A stretch of 22,007 nucleotides of DNA from a virus, in IMG/VR virus record IMGVR_UViG_3300021512_000012, positions 1 to 22,007 of that record. One strand, 5' to 3'. Under the pieces are notes generated by a model, which saw only the letters and a list, made by a program, of their open reading frames with translations, ran no database searches and had not been told where the DNA came from. The translations under genes were made by a program, and so were the position numbers. Of this stretch, positions 6,213-12,059 are shown piece by piece; the first letter of the stretch is position 1; every line of letters starts with the position of its first letter.

Positions 6213-9050
6213 ATGAGCAGGCTGAAGAAGCTAATAGAGACGCTATCTTCCGTTAAGAGCACTTGGATAGCTCTGTTCAGAGCCAGTAGCGGAGGGGAGC
6301 AAGAACTGCTTCAACAACCTTACCGCAAGAGCGATTTGGTTTACATTTGCATCTCCACTACTGCTAAGGCTATTTCGCAAGTCCCGCTCAGGGTTTATCG
6401 CGTCTGGGATGAGGGAAGGGAGCCGGTAGAGAAGGATCATCCATGGCAGAAGCTATTCAGGAGACCGAACTACCTGATGGATCAGTATAGCTTCATTGAG
6501 GCTATTGTAAGCTACCTGATGCTGGACGGACATGTATGGGTAATCCCCTATCCGCCCGGGATTGTGAGGTCAGGAGGCGTCCCGGACAGTCTGTGGGTAG
6601 TCAGCAAGCGTAATATGGAGCCTGTCCGCAGTCCGACCGGGCATTTGCTCGGCTGGAGGTATCGCCCGAATCCAGTGAGTGGGGTCAGGGAGAGCATAGA
6701 GTTGGGCGTGGATGAGGTAGTAAGCATTTGGTTCTGGAATCCTTATGATCCTGTGATGGGGCTGAGTCCGCTCGAGGCGGGATACATGAGTATCATGACC
6801 GACTACAAGGCCGCCTACTATAATGCGGTCTTTTTTGATGAAGGAGCGATGCCCGGGGGCGTTCTCTATACCGAGCAGTCTCTGTCAGACCATCAGTTCC
6901 AGCGACTGAAGGAGCAAATAGAGGCTCGGCACAAGGGTTATACGAAGGGGCACAGGCTGATGATTCTCGAGCGGGGGCTTAAGTATCAGCAAGTCGCTAT
7001 TTCTCATAAGGACATGGAGTTCTACGATCTGAGAAGGTTCAATCAGGAGCGAATCTTGCAGATCTTCGGGATGAAGAAGGTCATTATCAGTGTAACGGAC
7101 GATCTCAACTACGCAACCGCCCGGGAGCAGAGGAAGGAGTGGTGGCAGGGAACTTGCATCCCAATAATGAGGCTTATTCAGAGTGCACTGAACTTCTCCC
7201 TGTTCAGAGACTCGGATCTGGAAGTGGAGTTCGACTTGACGACGGTAGAGGCTTTGCAAGAGGACTTGAAGGACAAGGTTGACACGGCTTTGAAGCTGTC
7301 AAAGCTCGGTTTTACGGCTAACGAGATAAATGAGCGACTGAATTTAGGCTTTGAGCCCAAGCCATGGAGGGATTATTGGTATGCTCCTGTTAATGTCTTG
7401 CCCATAGGGGGCGAGGAGGATGAGGAGGACGAAGAGGAAGACGAGGAGGGCGGGGGAAAACAGCTCAAGGAGGCAGATCTGGAAAAGCTTTACGAGGGCT
7501 ACTGGAAAAGCTTCATCAGGGGAGTGAGGGTTCTGGAGGATGAGCTGGAGAGGGATGTGAAGAAGCTCTTCCGGGAGATGAAGAACAAGGCTTTGAAGCT
7601 GTTATTCAGGGGCGAGCGTAAGGGCGTGGAAGACTTGACTGGGGAAGACTGGCGTGAGGAGAAGGAGAAGATCAAAAAGCTGGCGGGAGCGATCTACGCC
7701 CAGGCTATGAAGAAGGGGGCTGAAAGCATAGGCAGGGAGTTGGGGATTGGAGTAAGGTTTGATCTGACTGATCCTGAGGCGGTCTCGTTTCTTGCGAAGA
7801 AGCTACTTCAGGTCACGGGAGTCATAGACACGATAAAGCGTCAGCTCGCCCGGACGCTTGCCGAAGGAATGGAGCAGGGAGAGAGCATTGACGAATTGGC
7901 TGAGCGTGTAGAGAGAGTGTTTGAGGTTGCCGAGCATAGGGCGAGGACTATCGCGAGGACGGAGGTCATCGGGGCTGCAAACTACGGCCGTCATCAGCAG
8001 ATTATGAAGACCGATTATACTGAGGTCAGATGGTTTACGGCGTTGGATGAGCGGGTAAGGCCTACCCATAGAGCTATGCACGGGAAGACCAAGAAAAAGG
8101 ATGAGATGTGGGTAGTAGGAGGAGCAAGCCTCCGGTTTCCGGGCGACCCGGCGGGTCCCGCCCGGGAAGTAATTAATTGCAGATGTATTGAGGTAGTTGT
8201 TCCTGAGAGTCTCCGTTTGATCCCTTCCACAGACCCCAAACAGGAGTTTCTGAAGAAAAAGGAGAAGCTAATCCGCAAATATGCCAGTAAGCCCCGAGCC
8301 TACGGCAAAACAGCCCTTCAGCGAGCCAAGAACTTCATGAGGGAGCTTCGCAAGCTCGTAGACGACTACGGAGGAATAGACCAGCTGGACATGGAACTCC
8401 TTATGAACCTGAAGAAAGAGGAGGCGGAGGAGCTACTCAAAAAAGTCATTCCATCCCGACATCCCGGAGTAAAGAGGGTCAGGGAGTATCTGGCACGGTT
8501 TGCGGGCAGGTTCTTCTCACGCGAGGTTCTGGAGAGAGTAGCCCGTAGCAAGCTGGAGGTAGAACTCAAGGGCGAGGACTTCCGCAGTTACTACCTGAGA
8601 TCAGGCTGGGATGAGGGGAAGATAGCAGTCAGGAGCATGGAGTGGGGTCGAGGCGACCGTTTAGTTCCCTCTAACACTTTTGCTCACGAATTCGGTCATC
8701 ATGTAGAACACTCGCTATTAGGACCCGGAGCAGGCAAAGGCGGATGCCACATAAGAGATGTTCTGAAGGAATGGCTCTTAAGCCGAGCCAGGAAGGACAA
8801 GAGAGGGCAACCAGTCATCAAGTCTCTGAAGGAGTTGACGGGGCTTCCTTACGACGATGACGAGCTTGCAGTGGTAGAGGGGTTCATTGATGTTTATGTG
8901 GGAAGGGTTTACCCGAACTTCGTCTCCTCTGAGGTAGTCTCTATGGGACTGCCTGAGTTCTTAGAGCCTGAACGGCTTCGGGCTTTCATGAAGGAAGACT
9001 GGGAGCACTTCTCCATCGTATATGGAATAATCACGGGGGCGTTATCATGA
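6213..9050 (+). CDS. Portal - MuF head protein - zinc metallopeptidase fusion
   Basis: A 945-residue multi-domain protein. Residues about 1-395 are an HK97-type portal, the ring at the head vertex through which DNA passes. An acidic linker (about 400-415, EEDEEDEEEDEE) leads into a helical stretch and a MuF (phage Mu gpF-like) minor head domain. The MuF signature is ARTIARTEVIGAAN, then TALDERVRPTHRAMHG (A610-G622), FPGDP, and INCRC with Cys656 and Cys658. After a helical spacer, a C-terminal domain carries HEFGHHVEH (His825, Glu826, His829) and, further on, SSEVVSMG (Glu907), the arrangement of a gluzincin-type zinc metallopeptidase. Portal plus MuF alone would be near 650-700 residues. The peptidase would sit inside or at the neck of the capsid and might be injected with DNA. 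A separate prohead protease follows, so maturation is not its obvious job. Confidence 0.88.
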   Translation: MSRLKKLIETLSSVKSTWIALFRASSGGEQELLQQPYRKSDLVYICISTTAKAISQVPLRVYRVWDEGREPVEKDHPWQKLFRRPNYLMDQYSFIEAIVSYLMLDGHVWVIPYPPGIVRSGGVPDSLWVVSKRNMEPVRSPTGHLLGWRYRPNPVSGVRESIELGVDEVVSIWFWNPYDPVMGLSPLEAGYMSIMTDYKAAYYNAVFFDEGAMPGGVLYTEQSLSDHQFQRLKEQIEARHKGYTKGHRLMILERGLKYQQVAISHKDMEFYDLRRFNQERILQIFGMKKVIISVTDDLNYATAREQRKEWWQGTCIPIMRLIQSALNFSLFRDSDLEVEFDLTTVEALQEDLKDKVDTALKLSKLGFTANEINERLNLGFEPKPWRDYWYAPVNVLPIGGEEDEEDEEEDEEGGGKQLKEADLEKLYEGYWKSFIRGVRVLEDELERDVKKLFREMKNKALKLLFRGERKGVEDLTGEDWREEKEKIKKLAGAIYAQAMKKGAESIGRELGIGVRFDLTDPEAVSFLAKKLLQVTGVIDTIKRQLARTLAEGMEQGESIDELAERVERVFEVAEHRARTIARTEVIGAANYGRHQQIMKTDYTEVRWFTALDERVRPTHRAMHGKTKKKDEMWVVGGASLRFPGDPAGPAREVINCRCIEVVVPESLRLIPSTDPKQEFLKKKEKLIRKYASKPRAYGKTALQRAKNFMRELRKLVDDYGGIDQLDMELLMNLKKEEAEELLKKVIPSRHPGVKRVREYLARFAGRFFSREVLERVARSKLEVELKGEDFRSYYLRSGWDEGKIAVRSMEWGRGDRLVPSNTFAHEFGHHVEHSLLGPGAGKGGCHIRDVLKEWLLSRARKDKRGQPVIKSLKELTGLPYDDDELAVVEGFIDVYVGRVYPNFVSSEVVSMGLPEFLEPERLRAFMKEDWEHFSIVYGIITGALS

Positions 9051-9274
9051 GTGTCAAGTTTACCATAATCAAAGACGGTAGGGAGATCACTGTCAAGGAT
9101 GCATTGAAAATGACGCCACTCGTCTTCTACGATCCGCTTGGGTTTTACAATGAAAAGTCTCCCTACTATGTAGCTCATGTTCTGAACTACTTGAAGCGGA
9201 AGGGCTTGATAGACGATTGGAAGGCGGAGGGCGAGTTTCCAAAAATAGAATACAATCCTGATGTGATATATTGA
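9047..9274 (+). CDS. Small protein coupled to the portal-MuF-peptidase gene
   Basis: A 75-residue protein of unknown family, starting at an ATGA overlap with the stop of the peptidase fusion and lacking a strong ribosome site of its own. Its translation is therefore probably coupled to that gene. It begins MSVKFTIIKDGREITVKDAL and contains an aromatic, acidic central part (PLVFYDPLGFYNEKSPYYVAH) and a short helix (VLNYLKRKGLIDDW). No membrane segment or metal motif is present. Its stop codon lies inside the -35 box of the capsid promoter. An inhibitor or immunity role toward the upstream peptidase is suggested only by coupling and size. Confidence 0.65.
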   Translation: MSVKFTIIKDGREITVKDALKMTPLVFYDPLGFYNEKSPYYVAHVLNYLKRKGLIDDWKAEGEFPKIEYNPDVIY

Positions 9275-9320: not shown

Positions 9321-10691
9321 ATGGCTTACATACTGAAAAGTAGTTCAGGAGAGGCGATCAAGGGAGGAGACAAGGAAGTTTGGGGTTCAGATGTCGTCCA
9401 CGCCGTCAAGGCAGTGGACTTGAAGAAAAGGACGCTAATCCTTACCGCTACGGATGAGACGAAGGATCGCGACGGGGATATCATATCCCTGAATGGCTGG
9501 ATCTTGGACAATTACATGAAGAACCCTGTTTTTCTTTGGGCTCATGATTATAAGAGCGTCCCGATCGGGGCAACCCAGAAGTTGATCCGTAGAAGGAAGC
9601 CTCCTCGCATGGAGGCGGTAATCAGGTTTCCAACTGAGGGGCTTTATCCCTTTGCAGACATGATCCTGAGGCTTTACGCGGAGAGGATCATAAATGCAGC
9701 CAGCGTCGGCTTTATTCCTCTGGAGTGGGAGCCTCTGGAAGAAAAACGCAACGGCGAGGTCGTCAGAGTAGGAAGGCGTTTTCTGAAGCAGGAGCTACTG
9801 GAGATCAGCGGATGTCCTGTTCCCAGCAACCCAAACGCCGTTCAGGACATGATCAAGGGGATGGGGCTTCCTGAAGAGGCCGCCTCATGGCTTACAGGAG
9901 ATCAGATTCCTGAGCCTGACCGCAAGGATGACATCCTCACTGAGCTGGAAGATCTGAAGGCTAAAGGAGTAGAGGTAGAGGAGGAGACAGACAGAGTGAT
10001 GGTTCAGGTTCCTGAGACGATCACTGAAGAGAAGAGAATCGTGGGCGATAAGAACCTGCCTTTGGATCCAAGACCTTCTTGGGACGGGAATGCAGCCAGA
10101 AGGAGAATCGCCCGCTGGGCTTCCAGCGACGGTAGCGGAGACAAAGACAAGATAGACTGGAAGAAGTATGCAAAAGCCTTCGTAGTATTAGCCGATCCGG
10201 ATAAGCCGGACAACTTCGGATCCTACAAGCTACCCTTCGCAGATGTGATTCGTGGCGAGCTGAAGGCGGTATGGGGAGGCGTGAAGGCTGCAATGGCGGC
10301 CGTGCTTGGAGCGAGGGGAGGAGTAGATCTTCCGGAAGCGGAACGCAAAAGAGCTTACAATTTCCTCGCCCACTATTACAGGAGGTTTGATAAGCCAGTG
10401 CCTGAATATCATCTGTTTACTGAGGCTGAGCGTGAGCTGTTTGAAGACTACGAAGAGGTCAGAGGTAGCCTTCAAGAGATCCGCCAGACTCTGGAAGCTA
10501 TCAAGGAAGGACAGGAGCATATTCGCAATGCTCTTGATGAGTTGATTTCCAAAGGGGACGAGGGAAGCAAAGACATTTCCTCTGACCTCTACTCCATCAT
10601 CCTCGAAGCCGAAAGCGAGCCCGGGAAGGAGGAGCTGGAAGGACTGGTCAAGGAGCTAAGGAGGATCACTGAAGAACTGAAAAAACTGTGA
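9321..10691 (+). CDS. HK97-family prohead serine protease with C-terminal extension
   Basis: A 456-residue protein. Residues about 25-190 match the phage prohead protease (peptidase S78) fold. The candidate catalytic His75 lies in WAHDYKSVPIG and Ser128 in NAASVGF, followed by the typical EISGCPVPSNPNA segment. Herpes/HK97-type proteases cleave scaffold and capsid N-termini during head maturation. Residues about 250-365 form a second domain (WDGNAARRRIARWASSD, FGSYKLPFADVI, YNFLAHYY) that I have seen attached to such proteases. The C-terminal 70-80 residues are coiled-coil and could act as an internal scaffold. Usual S78 proteases are about 200 residues, so this is a long multi-domain form. 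The start at 9321 follows AGGAGGGATGAAAG, downstream of the sigma-70 promoter. Confidence 0.88.
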   Translation: MAYILKSSSGEAIKGGDKEVWGSDVVHAVKAVDLKKRTLILTATDETKDRDGDIISLNGWILDNYMKNPVFLWAHDYKSVPIGATQKLIRRRKPPRMEAVIRFPTEGLYPFADMILRLYAERIINAASVGFIPLEWEPLEEKRNGEVVRVGRRFLKQELLEISGCPVPSNPNAVQDMIKGMGLPEEAASWLTGDQIPEPDRKDDILTELEDLKAKGVEVEEETDRVMVQVPETITEEKRIVGDKNLPLDPRPSWDGNAARRRIARWASSDGSGDKDKIDWKKYAKAFVVLADPDKPDNFGSYKLPFADVIRGELKAVWGGVKAAMAAVLGARGGVDLPEAERKRAYNFLAHYYRRFDKPVPEYHLFTEAERELFEDYEEVRGSLQEIRQTLEAIKEGQEHIRNALDELISKGDEGSKDISSDLYSIILEAESEPGKEELEGLVKELRRITEELKKL

Positions 10692-10703: not shown

Positions 10704-12059
10704 ATGAAGTTCTATGTAAAGGAAAACGGGCAGTTCAGAGAGGCTACTCAGGATGAAATCCTCAATCCCGAAGTCCAGCTCTATGATGAGAAGGGAGTTC
10801 CGCTCAAGAGGAAGTCAGCTCCTGCAGTCAAGAAGGAAGACCCCATCAAGGAGCTTCAGGGCGTGATAGAGGATCTTGCTGTTGCGGTCAAGGGCGTAGC
10901 CGGGATCAAGGAGAAGGTAGAACAGCTGGAAAAGGAACTTGCAGCATACAAGGAAGCTGCAAAGAAGGGCTTCCCTATTCCATCCCCAGAGGCAGGAGGG
11001 AAGGGAGCAGACGAGCTTCAGGAGATCGTAGGCTACGACCTCGCAAAGCAGGGCAGGAGGCTCATGGACAAGTTCTATCATCCATCTCATGTAATTGATG
11101 AGGAGACAAGAAAGGAGCTTGCCAGATACTTTACTCTGGTTGTCAAGGCAGGAGTGTTCCAAGATCCTGCAGCCAGAGCCAAGTTCTCTGAGGTTTACGG
11201 AAAGACCGCTATCGGCGATCCTGGCAATGAGTTTCCAGTGCCTGAAGTAGTGGAGGATGAAATCATAGCTTTTGCGAGGGAAAAGAGCGTCGTCCTTCAG
11301 TATGCAAGCGTCAGAGATATGACATCTGATAAGCAGTCTGTTCCTGCAGAGGTAGAGTCAGCAACAGCAGGATGGGGAAGCACTACGATTGAGTCTGAGC
11401 CAACAGTAGCCGAAGTAGAGCTTCAGGCTGAGGAGCTCAGTGCTTATTCTGCAGTAAGGAATTCTACGCTTCAGGATGCAAGAACAGACATCGTCTCATG
11501 GCTCACTGAAGCTCTGGCTGAGGCAGCAGGACTTGCTCTGGACGACGAGGCGTTTAACGGGGACGGAAGCAATGTCTGCACAGGGCTTCTGCTCGGAGCA
11601 GGTCATACGGTTCAGATGGAAACCGGGAAGACAAACTTCTCAGACCTTACAGCGGATCATCTCAGTGAGATGATAGCTAAGCTTGACGGAGTGAGAAAGC
11701 AGGGAGCAAGGTTCTATATGCATGGGCAGGTTCTCCACTATGTAAGGACTCTGAAGGACAGCGATGGAAGACCCATCTTCCTGAACACGATCGGAGATCC
11801 TGTGTCAGGGAATATTTACGGCTACCCGTATACTGAGGTCATAAAGATGCCTTCAGAGAGTGCTGCAAATACTCCGTTCATCATCTTCGGCAACCTCAAG
11901 TATTTCGTTGTAGGAAGGAGACTGGGAACGACTACTCTGCAGGTAGATCCATATGGGCTCTGGACAAGCAATAAGACGAGGTTTAAGCTCTATCAGAGAT
12001 GGGGAATGAAAATTGCTCTGCCGAAAGCCTTCGTCCGCCTCAAGACGGCTTCAAGCTAA
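10704..12059 (+). CDS. Major capsid protein, HK97 fold
   Basis: A 451-residue protein typical of HK97-type major capsid proteins, which form the head shell. Residues about 1-150 are a charged, partly coiled-coil region (LQGVIEDLAVAVKG, VEQLEKELAAYKEAAKKG) that probably works as a built-in scaffold and may be removed by the protease encoded upstream. The shell domain follows, with EFPVPEVVEDEIIAFAREKS, LQAEELSAYSAVRNSTLQD, LAEAAGLALDDEAFNGDGSN and an end typical of the family (YQRWGMKIALPKAFVRLKT). The start at 10704 follows GAGGAGGGAGAG. Arg codons are 19 AGA/AGG and one CGC, unlike neighbouring genes that use many CGN codons, as expected for a very highly expressed gene. Confidence 0.93.
   Translation: MKFYVKENGQFREATQDEILNPEVQLYDEKGVPLKRKSAPAVKKEDPIKELQGVIEDLAVAVKGVAGIKEKVEQLEKELAAYKEAAKKGFPIPSPEAGGKGADELQEIVGYDLAKQGRRLMDKFYHPSHVIDEETRKELARYFTLVVKAGVFQDPAARAKFSEVYGKTAIGDPGNEFPVPEVVEDEIIAFAREKSVVLQYASVRDMTSDKQSVPAEVESATAGWGSTTIESEPTVAEVELQAEELSAYSAVRNSTLQDARTDIVSWLTEALAEAAGLALDDEAFNGDGSNVCTGLLLGAGHTVQMETGKTNFSDLTADHLSEMIAKLDGVRKQGARFYMHGQVLHYVRTLKDSDGRPIFLNTIGDPVSGNIYGYPYTEVIKMPSESAANTPFIIFGNLKYFVVGRRLGTTTLQVDPYGLWTSNKTRFKLYQRWGMKIALPKAFVRLKTASS

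What the first reader, a model, noticed from the sequence alone, without database searches (positions are those of the whole stretch)
8400..9050. Zinc metallopeptidase domain fused to portal and MuF in one polypeptide
Seen directly: HEFGHHVEH at residues 825-833 and a later SSEVVSMG with Glu907, in the same open frame as a complete portal and a MuF domain. Known: MuF proteins lie in or on the capsid, and many temperate phages carry MuF fused to polymorphic toxin domains. Inference: the peptidase is packaged in the head or neck and may be delivered to the cell with DNA, acting on a host protein or cleaving the fusion itself. A separate S78 prohead protease is encoded next door, so ordinary head maturation is already covered.
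Basis: partly seen in the sequence, partly recalled or inferred. Interest (0 to 1): 0.75.

Follow-up and report, generated by a model that had tools for sequence, protein, structure and literature searches.

The report
Phage portal-MuF-peptidase with small partner
A bacterial virus carries a protein-cutting zinc enzyme built onto the end of its DNA-entry portal, and the gene right behind it encodes a small protein of a kind that accompanies the same enzyme in many unrelated phages, including the textbook phage P1, probably to keep the enzyme in check.

Summary
ORF 6213-9050 (945 aa, no break) is portal + MuF + a C-terminal zinc-peptidase domain; HEFGHHVEH is at 825-833 and the predicted third ligand is Glu907. 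Across 24 aligned phage relatives HExxH, that Glu, two Tyr and an Arg are invariant. The AlphaFold2 model (pLDDT 83) matches M34-type zincins best: PPEP-1/Zmp1 (Z 11.0), then anthrax lethal factor (Z 9.8). No Pfam or NCBIfam model covers the domain, but a profile built without DdrB-type rows finds the C-terminus of phage P1 DdrB (E 9e-15), a packaged virion protein. Portal-MuF and MuF-peptidase fusions are already known. A small acidic protein sits beside the peptidase gene in nearly every lineage examined, including P1 hxr next to ddrB. These proteins share a C-terminal signature: Ile/Val second from the end in 19/24 (background 13%), an [IV]Y end in 10/24 (background 2/270). Best reading: a virion-borne peptidase cargo with a dedicated partner, probably an inhibitor whose tail docks on the enzyme. 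Inhibition, packaging in this phage, substrate and self-cleavage are inferred, not shown. P1 hxr is non-essential, which argues against a simple lethal toxin-antidote pair.

The parts
6213..9050 (+). 945-aa portal-MuF-zinc peptidase polypeptide, one open frame
6339..7343 (+). portal domain (aa 43-377)
   Evidence: Pfam PF04860 E 2.1e-63
7413..7457 (+). acidic Gly-flanked linker EEDEEDEEEDEEGGG between portal and MuF, a possible hinge
   Evidence: sequence; role is inference
7845..8186 (+). MuF domain (aa 545-658)
   Evidence: Pfam PF04233 E 4.7e-20
8280..9047 (+). peptidase region (aa 690-945): N-terminal helices plus M34-like zincin core
   Evidence: AF2 pLDDT 83.1, pTM 0.82; VIA Z 11.0 to PPEP-1
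8685..8699 (+). HEFGH zinc-binding/catalytic motif (aa 825-829)
   Evidence: invariant in 24 of 24
8784..8786 (+). invariant Arg858
8895..8912 (+). YxGxxY motif, invariant Tyr895 and Tyr900; Tyr900 is the candidate catalytic Tyr (same 7-residue spacing to the Glu ligand as recalled for PPEP-1 Y178/E185)
   Evidence: PPEP-1 variant names; the equivalence is inference
8931..8933 (+). Glu907, predicted third zinc ligand
   Evidence: invariant
9047..9274 (+). 75-aa partner gene, overlaps the peptidase stop by ATGA (translational coupling); product ends NPDVIY-COOH
9263..9271 (+). C-terminal VIY of the partner, the shared [IV]Y-COOH signature
9321..10691 (+). separate head-maturation (S78-like) protease gene, context
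   Evidence: PHROG 80 E 6.9e-15
10704..12059 (+). major capsid protein gene, context
   Evidence: PF05065 E 8e-49

Best explanation
The C-terminal domain is an intact M34-like (PPEP / lethal-factor fold) zinc endopeptidase that rides into the virion as part of the portal-vertex protein and acts at or after DNA ejection, as do the virion-carried MuF and P1 Dar-type effectors. The gene behind it (9047-9274) encodes its dedicated small acidic partner, most likely an inhibitor or escort made in the producing cell. Its proline- and acid-containing C-terminal tail, ending in [IV]Y-COOH, probably docks in or near the peptidase cleft and keeps it from cutting phage or host proteins before packaging. 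Shown here: the domain, its conserved active site, the predicted fold, kinship with P1 DdrB, recurrence of a small partner gene and the shared C-terminal signature. Inferred: packaging in this phage, timing, inhibition and tail docking. Unknown: the substrate (a host protein, a defence protein, or the portal-MuF linker itself).
For: Active-site residues invariant in 24 relatives. AF2 model with confident core whose best solved relatives are PPEP-1/2/3 (Z 10-11, rmsd 3.2, about 149 aligned) and lethal factor (Z 9.8); an independent model of the Lactococcus homologue also ranks M34 structures first (Z about 7). A profile without DdrB rows finds P1 DdrB at E 9e-15 and the Vibrio Ackermannviridae-type proteins at 1e-22 to 1e-24. 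P1 DdrB is in virions and Hxr is absent from the virion list, though the 13-kDa DdrA was detected (PMC9024508). A small gene starts -11 to +14 nt from the peptidase stop in nearly all lineages; in locus L038 the partner gene lies just upstream of the peptidase instead. Portal-MuF relatives lacking the peptidase mostly lack such a gene. The C-terminal signature is highly enriched: [IV]Y end 10/24 vs 2/270 (p 1e-10); I/V at -2 in 19/24 vs 250/1856 (p 1e-12). Other MuF toxins have experimentally shown adjacent non-enzymatic inhibitor proteins (Apk2, PMC12226406; Bxa, PMC11699363).
Against: P1 hxr and ddrB are both non-essential by CRISPRi (plating 1.6 and 0.85, PMC10695390), so loss of Hxr is not lethal and a strict toxin-antidote role is unlikely in P1. 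The partner proteins are too diverged to prove one family by sequence: leave-one-out HMM searches rank many at 5-12 of about 880, but several (Vibrio type, L048, Lac) fall within background. About half of the 24 lack the terminal aromatic. Three loci (Xanthomonas Rb1, L023, L029) have no partner found. The fused AF2 model left the partner at low confidence, so docking was not tested. No virion data exist for this phage.
Confidence: 0.55

Rival explanations
1. Self-processing enzyme: the domain cuts its own polypeptide (between portal and MuF, or between MuF and peptidase) during head assembly, releasing MuF-peptidase from the 12-copy portal; the partner delays or guides this cut.
For: Iyer et al. 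2017 propose autoproteolysis for P1 DdrB and other polyvalent MPTases (PMC5512222); a ring of portal subunits each carrying an extra 500+ residues would be crowded (inference); a flexible acidic linker lies between portal and MuF.
Against: No test made. The domain also ends proteins without a portal, so portal release cannot be its general role. P1 DdrB peptides cover 59.5% of the full-length protein in virions, which neither proves nor excludes processing.
Confidence: 0.25
2. Classical MuF polymorphic toxin with immunity: the peptidase kills or arrests a newly infected cell and the partner protects lysogens.
For: Same gene order as the Apk2 and Bxa toxin-immunity pairs. Jamet et al. report metallopeptidase domains in 20% of 191 MuF toxins, and small ORFs behind 89.4% of toxin-bearing versus 25.5% of short MuF genes (PMC5576092).
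Against: The same pair occurs in Vibrio Ackermannviridae phages, a group I regard as virulent, and P1 hxr loss is tolerated. Toxicity not tested. Lifestyle of this phage unknown (22-kb fragment).
Confidence: 0.2
3. Structural leftover: the zincin fold serves only as a portal- or packaging-interaction module without catalysis, and the partner is an assembly chaperone.
For: In N4 virion RNAP the region containing the MPTase is needed for encapsidation while the protein stays unprocessed (stated in PMC5512222).
Against: All catalytic residues, including Glu826 and two Tyr, are invariant at 18-32% identity to the window, unlike a decayed enzyme.
Confidence: 0.08

Closest known systems
P1 DdrB (polyvalent-protein zincin MPTase) with Hxr
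   Same: Homologous C-terminal peptidase domain at the end of the gene (E 9e-15); overlapping downstream gene whose product ends QIVY; DdrB packaged in virions.
   Different: DdrB has an N-terminal ddrB-ParB domain (PF18763) and no portal or MuF; Hxr is annotated as a possible Xre-like repressor and its link to the peptidase is not stated in the papers searched here.
MuF polymorphic toxins (Jamet 2017; Apk2; Bxa)
   Same: MuF domain followed by a C-terminal enzyme domain and an adjacent small gene, in a head-gene context.
   Different: Here MuF is also fused to the portal; the enzyme is an M34-like peptidase not covered by Pfam or NCBIfam; toxicity and immunity untested; the partner tail signature also occurs outside MuF proteins.
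M34 zincins: PPEP-1/2/3 and lethal factor
   Same: Best-matching solved folds (Z 9.8-11); HExxH plus Tyr and Glu further on.
   Different: 10-15% identity; secreted enzymes rather than virion parts; no significant sequence-profile match; cleavage specificity here unknown.
Portal and MuF-like fusion proteins of Arthrobacter, Geobacillus and other phages
   Same: Portal and MuF in one polypeptide.
   Different: The complete relatives examined end after MuF or carry other tails; none had the HExxH domain.

Membership tests
MuF polymorphic toxins | MuF domain in a head-gene module | tested here: met
   PF04233 E 4.7e-20, next to protease and capsid genes
MuF polymorphic toxins | C-terminal enzymatic effector domain | tested here: met
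   conserved zincin domain
MuF polymorphic toxins | small gene immediately downstream | tested here: met
   9047-9274, ATGA overlap
MuF polymorphic toxins | toxicity neutralised by the downstream protein | not testable with these tools
   needs expression assays
MuF polymorphic toxins | temperate phage | tested here: inconclusive
   22-kb fragment; no integrase recognised among the ORFs searched, and not all ORFs were searched
Polyvalent-protein zincin MPTases (P1 DdrB type) | HExxH helix plus Glu on the following helix | tested here: met
   invariant; helices in the model
Polyvalent-protein zincin MPTases (P1 DdrB type) | sequence homology to the DdrB C-terminal domain | tested here: met
   profile without DdrB rows: E 9e-15 to DdrB and 1e-18 to L049
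Peptidase family M34 (PPEP, lethal factor) | fold | tested here: met
   VIA Z 11.0 (PPEP-1) and 9.8 (lethal factor); Foldseek prob 0.99 but E only 0.02
Peptidase family M34 (PPEP, lethal factor) | significant sequence-profile match | tested here: inconclusive
   no significant match in PDB sequences, Pfam or NCBIfam
Peptidase family M34 (PPEP, lethal factor) | catalytic Tyr a fixed distance before the Glu ligand | tested here: inconclusive
   7 residues in the window and invariant Tyr, but insertions lengthen the gap in P1 and Vibrio members
Peptidase family M34 (PPEP, lethal factor) | proline-directed cleavage | not testable with these tools
   needs substrate profiling
One homologous partner family including Hxr | sequence homology among partners | tested here: inconclusive
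   leave-one-out ranks high for some, background for others
One homologous partner family including Hxr | shared C-terminal [IV]Y-like tail and acidic character | tested here: met
   p 1e-10 to 1e-12

The most novel reading that the evidence does not exclude
Many unrelated phages, P1 included, share a two-gene cassette: a virion-packaged M34-like zinc peptidase plus a dedicated small inhibitor that blocks the active site with its own free C-terminus ([IV]Y-COOH). This would explain the function of P1 hxr and define a new class of protein inhibitor of HExxH peptidases.
Probability: 0.35. Interest if true: 0.7.

Novelty: new variant of a known kind. Interest (0 to 1): 0.5.

Why it matters
It ties the observed fusion to a peptidase family that spans MuF phages, cyanophages, Vibrio myophages and coliphage P1, and it names a specific partner gene with a C-terminal signature. 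Because P1 is genetically tractable and ddrB and hxr are both dispensable, the question of what packaged phage zincins do and what restrains them becomes directly testable in a model phage. A tail-docking inhibitor would also be a useful reagent class for M34-type peptidases.

Tried and rejected
(1) Pfam, NCBIfam and PDB sequence profiles for the peptidase: no significant family. (2) Docking by AlphaFold of the naturally in-frame Lactococcus cassette with the intervening TAA read as Gly (a device, not a claim of readthrough): partner pLDDT about 32-65, so uninformative. (3) Partners as one family by sequence alone: not demonstrated. (4) Partner as an HTH repressor, as hxr is annotated: no Pfam match for Hxr and only E 0.29 to a LexA fragment for the window protein; not supported. 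(5) Internal start giving a free MuF-peptidase: the only internal SD-like start is a TTG at 7056 inside the portal domain, before MuF; not supported. (6) Bacterial genomes: the first genome-contig scan found nothing, the second two Lactococcus loci; 1 of 398 genomes of their phylum has the domain. (7) Virion proteomics for phage pippi8-1: none seen in the passages read. (8) Portal-MuF relatives carrying the peptidase: none among those found.

Full report
What is there. The window is a 22-kb IMG/VR virus record. ORF 6213-9050 encodes 945 residues in one frame. Pfam finds a complete portal (43-377) and a MuF domain (545-658); the rest has no Pfam match. A second IMG/VR contig (L001) is identical across the gene. 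The head-maturation protease and major capsid genes follow.

The peptidase domain is real. tblastn of the C-terminal 280 residues against phage records finds distant relatives (about 27-34% identity) at the C-terminus of MuF proteins of Lactococcus and Flavobacterium phages, in a Planktothrix virion protein, and in large proteins of Vibrio phages. Further rounds added Streptococcus, Bacillus and Geobacillus phages and many metagenomic phages. In a 24-row alignment the two His and the Glu of HExxH, Arg858, Tyr895, Tyr900 and Glu907 are invariant although identity to the window is only 18-32%. Profile scores confirm membership with the query left out: window E 1e-19; P1 DdrB E 9e-15 with DdrB-type rows left out.

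Fold. AlphaFold2 on residues 690-945 with those 24 sequences gives mean pLDDT 83.1 and pTM 0.82; the core from about residue 160 of the model onward is mostly above 90. Foldseek puts the Pro-Pro endopeptidases first (prob 0.99, E 0.02). The finer aligner gives Z 11.0 over 149 residues for PPEP-1 and Z 9.8 for lethal factor, well above the unrelated zincins at about 5. A second model, of the Lactococcus homologue, ranks the same structures first, with a weaker Z of about 7. In the window Tyr900 precedes Glu907 by seven residues, which fits the PPEP-1 catalytic Tyr178 (named in the PDB titles) and its Glu ligand at 185 (my recollection). In P1 and Vibrio members an insertion lengthens this interval, so the equivalence is an inference. 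A shared fold shows no substrate.

Context that is already known. Portal-MuF fusions are common. MuF fused to metallopeptidase domains was reported by Jamet et al. (PMC5576092), and zincin MPTases in phage polyvalent proteins, including P1 DdrB, by Iyer et al. (PMC5512222), who suggest self-processing, action after delivery, or attack on host proteins. In P1, DdrB is a virion protein (39 peptides, 59.5% coverage; PMC9024508).

The partner gene. Directly behind the peptidase gene, overlapping as ATGA, lies a 75-aa ORF (9047-9274). The same arrangement recurs: a 70-107 aa ORF starting -11 to +14 nt from the peptidase stop in Planktothrix, Flavobacterium, Lactococcus, Streptococcus, Bacillus, Geobacillus and Vibrio phages, in P1 (ddrB-hxr) and in many metagenomic phages. 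In Bacillus BboS-125 the frame is present but its start codon is uncertain, and in Vibrio YC the gene is longer (130 aa). Planktothrix-type loci have tandem peptidase genes before one partner, and in L038 the partner precedes the peptidase. I found no partner in Xanthomonas Rb1, where the domain is internal, nor in L023 and L029. Among about a dozen MuF relatives without the peptidase, only L055 (unrelated Cys-rich ORF) and L070 (which has another C-terminal domain) had a closely coupled small ORF. Jamet et al. had noted small ORFs behind MuF toxin genes in general.

The tail signature. The partners are acidic (mean net charge per residue -0.08 versus +0.04 for background small genes) and their last 20 residues are rich in Asp/Glu (4.5 versus 1.9) and Pro (2.1 versus 1.2). 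Ten of 24 representatives end in [IV]Y (window ..NPDVIY; P1 Hxr ..HVDQIVY; Planktothrix ..EDIVY; Flavobacterium ..PKEIY; Streptococcus ..ENAIY) against 2 of 270 plausible small genes from the same loci (p 1e-10). Ile/Val at the second-last position holds in 19 of 24 against 250 of 1856 ORFs (p 1e-12). Representatives were chosen by position next to the peptidase, not by tail, but I noticed the tail in the first few before testing it, and the lineages are not fully independent, so the p-values are optimistic. A signature counted from the chain end suggests that the free C-terminus itself is recognised. Whole-protein homology could not be proven.

Mechanism. The most economical reading is cargo plus restraint: the peptidase is packaged through its portal-MuF body, and the partner, made in the same cell and not listed among P1 virion proteins, holds it inactive until packaging, its tail lying on or near the cleft. 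M34-type enzymes favour proline-containing segments (established for PPEPs) and the tails contain prolines, but this is suggestive only. Against a strict toxin-antidote reading, P1 tolerates loss of hxr (PMC10695390). The attempt to see docking in a fused model failed for lack of partner depth. Self-processing of the fusion remains a live alternative: the portal is a multi-copy ring, so each virion would otherwise carry about twelve peptidase domains (inference).

Verdict. The finding is correct and the enzyme is very likely a functional zinc peptidase by sequence and predicted fold. As a fusion it is a new architecture of a known kind (portal + MuF + DdrB-type zincin). The part that raises interest is the recurrent partner with its C-terminal signature and the link to P1 hxr, which makes the restraint hypothesis testable in a model phage.

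Noticed in passing
L050:5488-5796 (phage P1 hxr): Hxr, annotated as a possible Xre-like repressor, has no Pfam match, matches only a PHROG of unknown function (2292), and carries the same C-terminal IVY tail as the window partner; the repressor annotation looks doubtful.
   Followed up: partly
L005:2112-4357; also L021, L027, L028: Planktothrix PaV-LD-type phages carry two tandem peptidase genes followed by one partner gene; L038 has the partner upstream of its peptidase.
   Followed up: partly
window:4377-4877: ORF resembling S-adenosylmethionine decarboxylase (PHROG 3125, E 4e-5), unusual for a phage.
   Followed up: no
window:25-417: HU/IHF-like DNA-binding protein at the left end (PHROG 379, E 2e-10).
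   Followed up: no
window:5199-6074: Phosphoesterase/exonuclease-like ORF (PHROG 7339, E 2e-11) just upstream of the portal; no terminase large subunit recognised among the ORFs searched (not all were searched).
   Followed up: no
L012:2270-4309 (Bacillus phage vB_BboS-125): MuF-family head protein annotated as an arginine ADP-ribosyltransferase ends in this zinc-peptidase domain.
   Followed up: no
L023 and L029, ORF after the peptidase: Instead of the small partner, a 176-177 aa protein that looks like a SLOG-type (YspA-like) fold by eye follows the peptidase.
   Followed up: no
L070:7098-8363: MuF-type protein with a different C-terminal domain (JAB-like by eye) also directly followed by a 69-aa ORF.
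   Followed up: no
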